This document shows, one piece after another, positions 28,778-31,459 of a stretch of DNA of 64,000 bases. This DNA comes from Methanofollis tationis (GTDB lineage: Archaea > Halobacteriota > Methanomicrobia > Methanomicrobiales > Methanofollaceae). The translations under genes and the position numbers were made by a program. The notes beneath the pieces were generated by a model that saw nothing but the letters and a program-made list of their open reading frames with translations, was not told where the DNA came from and did not search any database. Within the stretch, counting starts at the first letter, position 1; each line of letters begins with the position of its first letter. Where the stretch lies: positions 259,104 through 323,103 of the forward strand of contig NZ_JABXWR010000001.1 of NCBI RefSeq assembly GCF_013377755.1, given 5' to 3'.

Positions 28778-30062
28778 CCCCTTTTAGTTGAGATGGGGAT
28801 CATATGCACATATACCTTCTGCGTCATCCTCTCACCGGGCAGATCCCGAGGTCGGCAAGGTTCCAGACGGAGAAGCCCCCCTCCCTCAGCATCTCCTTTC
28901 CCTGGACGGTGCGGGCGGCAATCCCCATCTTCACCGGCCCCGAGAGCCCCTTTACCCGCGGGATCTTCTTTTCAAGGGCGGAGAGGATGCCCCGCGCCTC
29001 CGAGAAGGTCAGGTCACGGTTCTTGATCTCCACCGCAAGGTTTCCCTGAGAGCCCAGGGCAAGGAGGTCGATCTCGTCTCCGCGCCTGTTCCACCAGGCA
29101 CCGGCCCGTTCATACTGTGCGGCCGTCTCCCGCACCAGGAGGGCCCGCACCATCTCTTCGAAGGCCCGGCCTGAAAAGCCCTTCCACTCAGAGAGGATCC
29201 TGCCCTTCAGGAGATCATAGCGCCCACCCTCGTACAGGCTCATATTCCGGTAGATATAGCGGGCATAAAACCGGAAGAAATTGTCGGAAAAGACGTACCG
29301 CCCCATCTTCGACCGGTGCCTATCCTCGGTGACCGGGACCCGGTACTCAAGGATCCCGGGGAGGTCGACGAGATCCCGCAGGTACGGCGGGAGGGAGGTC
29401 GGTGCGCGGCCGGTGAAATCGGCGATCTCCTTCTGGGCCATCTTTCCCTCTGCGATGGCGGCGAAGATCTCGTAATAGGTCGCATGCTCGCGCCCGAACT
29501 CCTCGATCATCACCTCGCTCATCTCCCGCCTGAGGGGGGCGAGGTCGTTGAGGACGAGCCGGTCAAGAGCACTGGACAGATCGGTGCAGCCGTACTTCTC
29601 CAGGAAGGTGTAGTAGTAGATTGTCCCGCCAAAGAGGAGATAGAGGTCGAGCTGCGCTGCCGGATCCCGCACGCCGATATCGTTGAGAATGGAGAAGCAG
29701 TCTCGCGGCTCGAAGGGACGGAGTGTGAGGATATTATCGGCCCGCCTGAAAAGAGGTGCATCGCCGTCCAGGAAGATCTTCCTGATCATCCCGACCGACG
29801 ATCCCGAGACGATGAGAAAGAGGTTTGACGCTCGTCCTTTGAGGTCCCAGAACCGCTGCATCTGCGAGATGAACGAGGGGTGGACCTTCTGGAAGCGCTG
29901 AAACTCGTCGAAGACGACAACCAGGGGGCGTTCATAGGAGAAGAGAAATTCGAGGAAGGCTTCCGGGGTATCGGTCCTGATGTAGCCGGGCAGGTCGAGC
30001 GTTTTCGTCATCAACTCTCCGAATTCCTCGATCAGGGCTTCGATGCTCTTGTTTGCGTCCAC

Positions 30063-31297
30063 GTGACCCCTCCCCCTCCTCTCGTCGGGGGCATCCTGGG
30101 ATGTTATCCCTGAGATTGCAGCCCCAATCTCATAATATTGATCGCCGCATTCTGGTCGCGATCCATCACCAACCCGCAATGCGGGCAGGAATGGACACGA
30201 TCAGAAAGTGTCTTTGCGACGATCATCCCACATCTGGAACATATTTGAGACGTGTTTCTGGGGTTCACCAGGATCACGCGTGAGCCAGCATCTTCCGCTT
30301 TGCTCTCTGTGATCGTGATGAACAGATTCCAGGCGACATCTGCAATACTTTTTGCCAGATGATGGTTCTTCTGCATATGTGTGATGTTCAGGTCCTCGAA
30401 CACAATCGTACCGAACCGATCCACCAACTGCCGGGAGGTCTGGTGAGCAAAATTGAGCCGTCTGTTGGCGATCCGTTCGTGGACGTGTGCGACGATCTTC
30501 CTGGCCTTCTTCCGTTCGGGAGTTCCTTTCTCTAATTTCGAGAGTTTCCTCTGCGCCTTTGCAAGGGCCTTCTCGTCGGTGCGGAAGAACCGTGGGTTCT
30601 CGATCTTCTCACCGTTTGAGAGGGTGGCAAAGGACTCTAACCCGACATCGATCCCGACTACGGTCTCTTTCTGCGGTGCAGGCGTGGGATCATACTCGAC
30701 CGAGAAGCAGGCATACCACTTTCCGGTCGAAGACCGCCGGACCGTGAGGGTCTTGATCGTCCCTTCGACCGGACGGTGGAGGACGATCTTCACATCTCCG
30801 ATCTTCGAGAGATGGAGGTGGTCCCCATTGAGTTTGAACCCTCCTTTCTGGCCTTGAGGATACGTGAAACTGTCGTATCGACCTTTCCCCTTGAACCGGG
30901 GATAACCGGGGTTTTCCCCTGCCTTCGCCCGCCGAAAAAAGGCTTTAAATGCAAGGTCCACCCTGACCTGAACATTCTGGAGGGTCTGAGCATAGACCTG
31001 TTTCAGTTCAGGGCGCTCCCTCTTCCACTGGGTCAGGATCTTGTTTGTTTCGAAAAGGGGGATAGAACGCTGTTCTTGTTCCCATGCGTCCTTTCGCAAT
31101 GCAAGGGTATCGTTATAGACCCACCGACATATCTCAAGCGTCTGCTCTAACAGAGTGACTTGAGATTTCGTTGGATAGATCCTGTACCGATATGCCCTAA
31201 GCATTGTAATGCTGCATTGATATTTACCTTAGATAGAGTTATCGGTGGACGGCATTCACCTCCTCACTGAAGGGGGAGCACTCTGCCTGCTTTGATC
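30063..31297 (-). mobile_element. IS200/IS605-group (IS1341-like) TnpB element
   Basis: Element of 1235 bases that carries only tnpB. Ends are inferred from frame restoration in the host ATPase: the left end begins right after TTCTAC on the minus strand and the right end finishes GGGGTCAC. A hairpin of the IS605 right-end kind (GCCCCC...GGGGGAGGGG) lies between tnpB and the right end. No target duplication is seen, as expected for this group. No TnpA transposase is present, so movement would need one in trans. Confidence 0.8.
30104..31204 (-). CDS. tnpB: TnpB RNA-guided nuclease homologue
   Basis: 366 residues, complete. The split RuvC active site is intact: D186 in VVGIDVGLESFA, E270 in TIVFEDLNI, and D350 in VMDRDQNAA. 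A zinc finger of four cysteines (CSRC at 322-325 and CPHC at 340-343) lies between the last two. The N-terminal part (YRYRIYPTKSQ, PRFKGKG) is the usual REC and wedge region. TnpB proteins are guided by an omega-RNA from the element's right end; here the 3' noncoding part is only about 40 bases, so the RNA would overlap the end of the gene. Confidence 0.93.
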   Translation of the reverse strand: MLRAYRYRIYPTKSQVTLLEQTLEICRWVYNDTLALRKDAWEQEQRSIPLFETNKILTQWKRERPELKQVYAQTLQNVQVRVDLAFKAFFRRAKAGENPGYPRFKGKGRYDSFTYPQGQKGGFKLNGDHLHLSKIGDVKIVLHRPVEGTIKTLTVRRSSTGKWYACFSVEYDPTPAPQKETVVGIDVGLESFATLSNGEKIENPRFFRTDEKALAKAQRKLSKLEKGTPERKKARKIVAHVHERIANRRLNFAHQTSRQLVDRFGTIVFEDLNITHMQKNHHLAKSIADVAWNLFITITESKAEDAGSRVILVNPRNTSQICSRCGMIVAKTLSDRVHSCPHCGLVMDRDQNAAINIMRLGLQSQG

Positions 31298-31459
31298 GTA
31301 GAAATAGAGGGCCTGCTTGTTCCTGCAAAACTCCCTGATCAGTTCGGTCTTCCCGACCCGCCGTCTGCCGGTGACGACCAGGAAAGAGGGTGCGGCGGCA
31401 TAGAGGTGCTCCATCAGCCCGAGTTCCGCCGTCCTGCCGTAGAAGCGCATGGTGATTGT

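What the first reader, a model, noticed from the sequence alone, without database searches (positions are those of the whole stretch)
30063..31297. TnpB element with exact ends fixed by frame restoration in a split ATPase gene
Removing 30063-31297 joins two halves of an ATPase gene as ALYFY-VDANKS in frame, giving a 463-residue protein with both Walker motifs and the DUF234-type end. This sets the element's ends without alignment and shows the insertion followed TTCTAC. TnpB has D186, E270, D350 and the zinc finger intact, so an active RNA-guided nuclease is plausible. The 3' noncoding part is only about 40 bases, so the omega-RNA must overlap the coding end.
Basis: partly seen in the sequence, partly recalled or inferred. 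Interest (0 to 1): 0.6.

Follow-up and report, generated by a model that had tools for sequence, protein, structure and literature searches.

The report
TnpB element splitting an archaeal ATPase
A small jumping gene carrying an RNA-guided DNA cutter has split an ATPase gene in a methane-making archaeon; its sister copies use three different landing signals, and the signal-reading part is swapped between copies by recombination, giving natural comparisons for how such cutters recognise DNA.

Summary
Window 30063-31297 (-) is a tnpB-only IS200/IS605 (IS1341-type) element inside a DUF234-type ATPase gene of a Methanofollis-like archaeon. Three congeners carry the vacant site with the predicted junction TTCTAC|GTGGAC. 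Frame restoration alone fits four registers; other copies fix the ends as read.

Corrections: (1) the motif is TCTAC; the sixth base varies. (2) TnpB is intact and conserved (dN/dS about 0.1; fold matches ISDra2 TnpB), but this copy looks grounded: its left-end hairpin has decayed, its omega-RNA alone among 39 scored has a real break in a 6-bp pseudoknot, and the only Y1 transposase found in the genome carries an in-frame stop.

New result: the family has three motif types (TTTAC, TCTAC, TTTAG). Motif base -4 matches a left-end guide base (6/6 against 0/29 insertions) and TnpB residues at or beside motif contacts of ISDra2; base -1 matches residues at the -1 contacts. The 5' half (left end plus motif-reading domains) and 3' half (RuvC plus omega-RNA) have conflicting histories: 5' halves group by motif, 3' halves largely by genome. 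Recombination thus appears to move the motif-reading module between elements. That TnpB itself changes specificity is inferred.

The parts
30063..31297 (-). IS1341-type (tnpB-only IS200/IS605) element, 1235 bp
   Evidence: vacant site in three congeners; ends shared with other copies
31298..31302 (-). target / transposon-associated motif TCTAC
   Evidence: left flank; same motif class in six other insertions including L034
31279..31282 (-). left-end guide AGTG; its second base G (31281) matches motif base -4 C
   Evidence: guide base G in 6/6 xCTAC insertions, A in 29/29 others; IS608 guide rule in PMC5934647
31260..31278 (-). decayed left-end subterminal hairpin
   Evidence: fold z 0.12 against -3.4 to -4.0 in three other copies
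30104..31204 (-). tnpB, 366 aa, RuvC D186/E270/D350, zinc finger
30815..31204 (-). 5' (motif-reading) module of tnpB, residues 1-130, including R3, A72, T74 and the 118-121 insert
   Evidence: trees and sliding identity
30111..30132 (-). omega-RNA hairpin TGAGATT-GGGGCTGC-AATCTCA inside the tnpB 3' end
30065..30070 (-). omega-RNA tail GGGGTC (consensus GCAGTC), pseudoknot partner of 30118-30123; one G-G mismatch in this copy
30072..30091 (-). right-end subterminal hairpin, preceded by guide GATG (30092-30095); cleavage site TCAC at 30063-30066
30047..30062 (-). predicted 16-nt omega-RNA guide segment (flank), GTGGACGCAAACAAGA
   Evidence: position next to the right end, by analogy with ISDra2 (PMC8612924)
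31298..31450 (-). N-terminal 51 codons of the split ATPase_2/DUF234 gene
28824..30062 (-). C-terminal part of the split ATPase_2/DUF234 gene

Best explanation
The element is a non-autonomous IS200/IS605 (IS1341-type) insertion. A Y1 transposase acting in trans placed it 3' of TCTAC in an ATPase gene, using the left-end guide AGTG to pair with the target (inferred from IS608). Its TnpB should bind an omega-RNA formed by the tnpB 3' end plus the right end, with the flank as guide, and cut vacant copies of the site next to TCTAC, favouring retention of the element (inferred from ISDra2). In this family the left end and the motif-reading N-terminal part of TnpB form one module, and the RuvC part plus omega-RNA form another. 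Recombination between copies reassorts the two, and the 5' module carries its own target specificity (TTTAC, TCTAC or TTTAG). The window copy is a TCTAC-type 5' module on a 3' half close to those of its own genome. It keeps an intact TnpB but has a decayed left-end hairpin and a weakened omega-RNA, so it is probably immobile; its TnpB might use omega-RNAs from sister copies. Shown: ends, vacant sites, module conflict, covariation, conserved RNA structure, protein integrity. Inferred: cleavage, TnpB motif preference, trans mobilisation.
For: Vacant sites. TnpB family and fold. Relatives with Y1 TnpA directly upstream of tnpB. Motif -4 against guide base 6/6 versus 0/29, Fisher p 6e-7, and against residue 72 6/6 versus 0/23, p 2e-6. 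Motif -1 C/G against residues 50, 53, 54, 58, at the ISDra2 -1 contacts Y52 and S56. Conflict of 5' and 3' trees, p-AU 9.7e-5 (protein), 2.4e-8 and 2.1e-58 (DNA). L009 and L086/L087 separate the guide base and TnpB residues from the left-end type. Conserved omega-RNA pseudoknot. dN/dS 0.09-0.18.
Against: No cleavage or RNA data. The TnpB changes come from few events: only 3 independent pairs on well-supported branches, all in agreement but without statistical power. The motif at a site reflects transposase targeting; TnpB preference is inferred from the position of residues. Own-genome grouping of 3' halves has weak support (48/82). The transposase search used one Pfam model on a 99.3%-complete genome.
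Confidence: 0.72

Rival explanations
1. Only the left-end guide sets the target; the TnpB residue differences are linked passengers on the same 5' segment, and TnpB tolerates all three motifs.
For: Guide, motif-proximal residues and left end lie within about 500 bp and are inherited together; IS608 target choice is set by the guide (PMC5934647).
Against: Of all TnpB positions the differences that track the motif best fall at or beside the ISDra2 motif contacts, and L009 has such patches in a TTTAC-like N-terminal backbone.
Confidence: 0.22
2. The window copy is a fully active, mobile TnpB element with a working omega-RNA.
For: Intact TnpB and cleavage sites; low dN/dS.
Against: Decayed left-end hairpin, only real pseudoknot break among 39 scored right ends, no tnpA in the element and only a stop-interrupted one in the genome.
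Confidence: 0.12
3. The conflicting trees reflect rate differences or RNA constraint in the 3' half, not recombination.
For: The last part of tnpB is also omega-RNA and is more conserved; dS is lower in the 3' part.
Against: Constraint lowers divergence but does not make 3' halves of differently typed copies of one genome resemble each other more than copies of their own type; AU tests reject the 5' groups in the 3' data.
Confidence: 0.08
4. The TnpB of this copy has been taken over by the host (domesticated) for regulation or another function.
For: Low dN/dS together with damaged ends.
Against: RuvC triad intact; the locus is empty in three congeners; pairwise dN/dS mostly reflects history before this insertion.
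Confidence: 0.04

Closest known systems
ISDra2 TnpB (Deinococcus radiodurans, IS200/IS605)
   Same: fold (Z 30.6, 34% identity), RuvC triad, zinc finger, omega-RNA overlapping the tnpB 3' end, motif read by N-terminal domains
   Different: motif TTGAT there, TCTAC here; ISDra2 carries tnpA, this element does not; this copy's omega-RNA pseudoknot is damaged
IS608 (Helicobacter pylori, TTAC target)
   Same: guide tetranucleotide 5' of each subterminal hairpin: AGTG/AATG left with TCTAC/TTTAC, GATG right with TCAC; IS608 has AAAG/TTAC and GAAT/TCAA (PMC5934647)
   Different: five-base motif, natural change of motif base -4 together with the guide, no tnpA in the element
IS1341-type (tnpB-only) elements
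   Same: tnpB alone between left and right ends
   Different: none of substance; relatives L178 and L110 still have tnpA upstream
Sulfolobus islandicus IS605-type TnpBs (PMC10640517, PMC11043419)
   Same: archaeal TnpB with RNA spanning coding end and right end
   Different: different host; not compared residue by residue here

Membership tests
IS200/IS605 superfamily element, IS1341 type | subterminal hairpins with guide bases and conserved cleavage sites at both ends, no target duplication | tested here: met
   vacant sites without duplication. The left hairpin of this copy is decayed
IS200/IS605 superfamily element, IS1341 type | tnpB only, no tnpA inside the element | tested here: met
IS200/IS605 superfamily element, IS1341 type | mobilised by a Y1 transposase in trans | not testable with these tools
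   only a stop-interrupted Y1 gene was found in the genome
TnpB RNA-guided nuclease | OrfB_IS605 and TNB domains, RuvC D/E/D, zinc finger | tested here: met
TnpB RNA-guided nuclease | omega-RNA from the tnpB 3' end plus right end | tested here: met
   family level: covarying stem and pseudoknot in 45 right ends; the window copy breaks one pair; expression not tested
TnpB RNA-guided nuclease | motif-dependent, guide-dependent DNA cleavage | not testable with these tools
   needs biochemistry
ATPase_2/DUF234 protein (host gene) | P-loop ATPase_2 domain plus DUF234 after removal of the insert | tested here: met
   halves match PF01637 (below the curated cut-off when split) and PF03008; intact orthologues 84-95% identical in three congeners

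The most novel reading that the evidence does not exclude
TnpB elements change target specificity by recombining a 5' module (left-end guide plus motif-reading N-terminal part of TnpB) onto a separate 3' module (RuvC plus omega-RNA). Single-base motif switches (-4 T/C and -1 C/G) are set by a few residues at the known motif-contact positions, with L009 as a natural small-patch swap.
Probability: 0.6. Interest if true: 0.65.

Novelty: new member of a known kind. Interest (0 to 1): 0.48.

Why it matters
The element itself is an ordinary kind of insertion. The family is useful because closely related TnpBs (83-90% identical) appear to serve three different motifs and differ at few contact residues, so motif recognition by TnpB can be tested by swapping a handful of residues. 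It also indicates how transposase target choice and nuclease motif stay matched in elements that no longer carry a transposase.

Tried and rejected
Rfam at gathering thresholds found nothing in the window, so the omega-RNA was inferred from 45 aligned right ends. Left-end type (GATC versus GAAG) as the predictor of the motif was rejected as the better explanation: it fails for three insertions, while the guide base and TnpB residues fail for none. A single history for the whole of TnpB was rejected. The idea that short right-end matches are separate miniature elements was not supported: several in G010 lie at contig ends. Literature searches found no held paper on natural motif switching or recombination among TnpBs; the library lacks most subscription papers, so this is weak evidence of novelty. 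Distant Chloroflexi and viral TnpBs were not used for motif analysis because their left ends could not be delimited with confidence.

Full report
Where it is. The window lies in a 2.25-Mb archaeal genome of two contigs. Its 12-genome genus group is most likely Methanofollis: contig 83 of genome G010 has the length (5,405 bp) and carries the element copy of record JASGMW010000093.1, titled Methanofollis sp..

Observation. TnpB spans 30104-31204 (-), 366 aa, with PF12323, PF01385 and PF07282 over cut-off and NF040570 guided_TnpB at 350 bits. Removing 30063-31297 joins the flanks into a 463-aa ATPase_2/DUF234 protein. Three congeners hold the uninterrupted gene, 84-95% identical in protein, with the junction aligned without a gap. 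Other copies settle the register: left ends start GAAGAAAACAGGCAG or GATCAAA..CAGGCAG after ..TAC, and right ends finish ..GTCAC.

Family. The same genome has four further copies at 82-85% nucleotide identity, one of them interrupted by a Mutator-family transposase. Copies occur across Methanofollis and Methanoculleus. Relatives L178 and L110 carry a Y1 transposase directly upstream of tnpB, so the tnpB-only form probably derives from an IS605 layout. The only Y1 match in the window's genome belongs to another element and has an in-frame TAG before its last helix, where the catalytic tyrosine of IS608 TnpA sits (PMC5934647).

Omega-RNA. In 45 right ends the last codons of tnpB form a hairpin GAGATT-loop-AATCTC whose loop pairs with six bases of the tail just before the terminal AC. 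Of 39 ends in which this could be scored, 37 have all six pairs, including changed pairs GGCGGC/GCCGTC in Chloroflexi and GACTAC/GTAGTC in L203. Of the other two, L122 is a mis-parse by the script (by eye its hairpin GGGAT-GGGGCGGC-ATCCC also gives six pairs), and the window copy has five with one G-G mismatch. The window left-end hairpin is no more stable than shuffled sequence (z 0.12), whereas three other copies give z -3.4 to -4.0. TnpB itself is conserved: pairwise dN/dS 0.09-0.18 against seven relatives; AlphaFold mean pLDDT 89.8; best structural match ISDra2 TnpB, Z 30.6.

Motif types. Left flanks of 35 insertions with GAAG- or GATC-like left ends were read. Motif base -4 is C in six and T in 29. 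The second base of the tetranucleotide just 5' of the left hairpin (the guide in IS608) is G in all six and A in all 29 (Fisher p 6e-7). TnpB residue 72 is A in all six and never A in 23 readable others (p 2e-6); residue 74 and the 118-121 insert behave alike. Four close and several distant elements have TTTAG instead, a left end spelling CTAA (the reverse complement of TTAG), and TnpB residues Y50, S53, K54, P58 where TTTAC types have L, T, N, T. In ISDra2 TnpB, base -1 touches Y52 and S56, -3 touches K76, -4 touches F77 and T123, and -5 touches N124 (PMC10097598). By profile alignment these are window residues 50 and 54, 72, 73 and 116, and 117. So the -1 set falls on the -1 contacts, and the -4 set falls at or beside the -3/-4/-5 contacts. 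Vacant sites confirm TTTAG for L004, and the L003 site with one substitution in the motif of the relative. Because the insertions lie at different sites, their motifs are separate draws of target choice. The TnpB changes are not: they come from few events.

Mosaic structure. Trees of residues 1-130 and 131-366 disagree. All xCTAC TnpBs are one clade in the first (94/94), and that clade is rejected in the second (p-AU 9.7e-5). For DNA, own-genome copies are rejected as a clade in nt 1-390 (p-AU 2.4e-8) but fall together in nt 500-1142, with weak support (48/82). TTTAG copies are one clade in the 5' part (100/100) and rejected in the 3' part (p-AU 0.008); xCTAC copies are rejected there too (2.1e-58). 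Sliding identity shows the same: L004 is 86-90% identical to foreign TTTAG copies at nt 101-250 against 66-67% to same-genome L002/L003, and 93-95% to L002/L003 at nt 801-1050. L009 is like the TTTAC copy L010 over residues 41-60 and 81-100 but has TCTAC-type patches at 68-74 (including a shared silent site at 70) and around 101-127. The Methanofollis copies used here come from assemblies of one to three contigs (L001-L005, L009, L010, L011, L020, L021), so binning errors are unlikely to explain this.

Interpretation. The simplest account is recombination between copies, with the 5' module carrying target specificity and the 3' module tending to be homogenised within genomes. That TnpB's own motif preference follows the module is inferred from the position of the residues and from L009; it has not been measured. 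For the window copy, an intact protein on damaged ends suggests a fixed insertion whose TnpB might still work with RNAs from sister copies.

Noticed in passing
L005:2641-3768 (own genome, about 1960417-1961673): A sister TnpB copy is interrupted by a Mutator-family (PF00872) transposase gene.
   Followed up: partly
L038:1501-2901 (own genome 775325-776728): Another IS605-type element with tnpA upstream of tnpB; the tnpA frame has one in-frame TAG near its end and the tnpB frame stops early. Decay or stop read-through was not distinguished.
   Followed up: partly
L034/L023 (G004 2931522-2931991): An internally deleted copy of about 0.47 kb keeps both ends, the TCTAC motif and the matching AGTG guide.
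   Followed up: partly
L002 flanks (own genome 1473764): This copy sits in a short repeat array; an adjacent repeat unit carries the same GTCAGGTACGCTTTAC site unoccupied.
   Followed up: no
window 28824-30179 (-): An open frame reads from the right end of the element straight into the C-terminal ATPase part, so the rear fragment could in principle be expressed with a foreign N-terminus.
   Followed up: no
own genome 1341012-1343848, next to L003: Repeats of about 230 bp, spaced about 480-560 bp and 82-83% identical to the left flank of copy L003, lie in a row; not identified.
   Followed up: no
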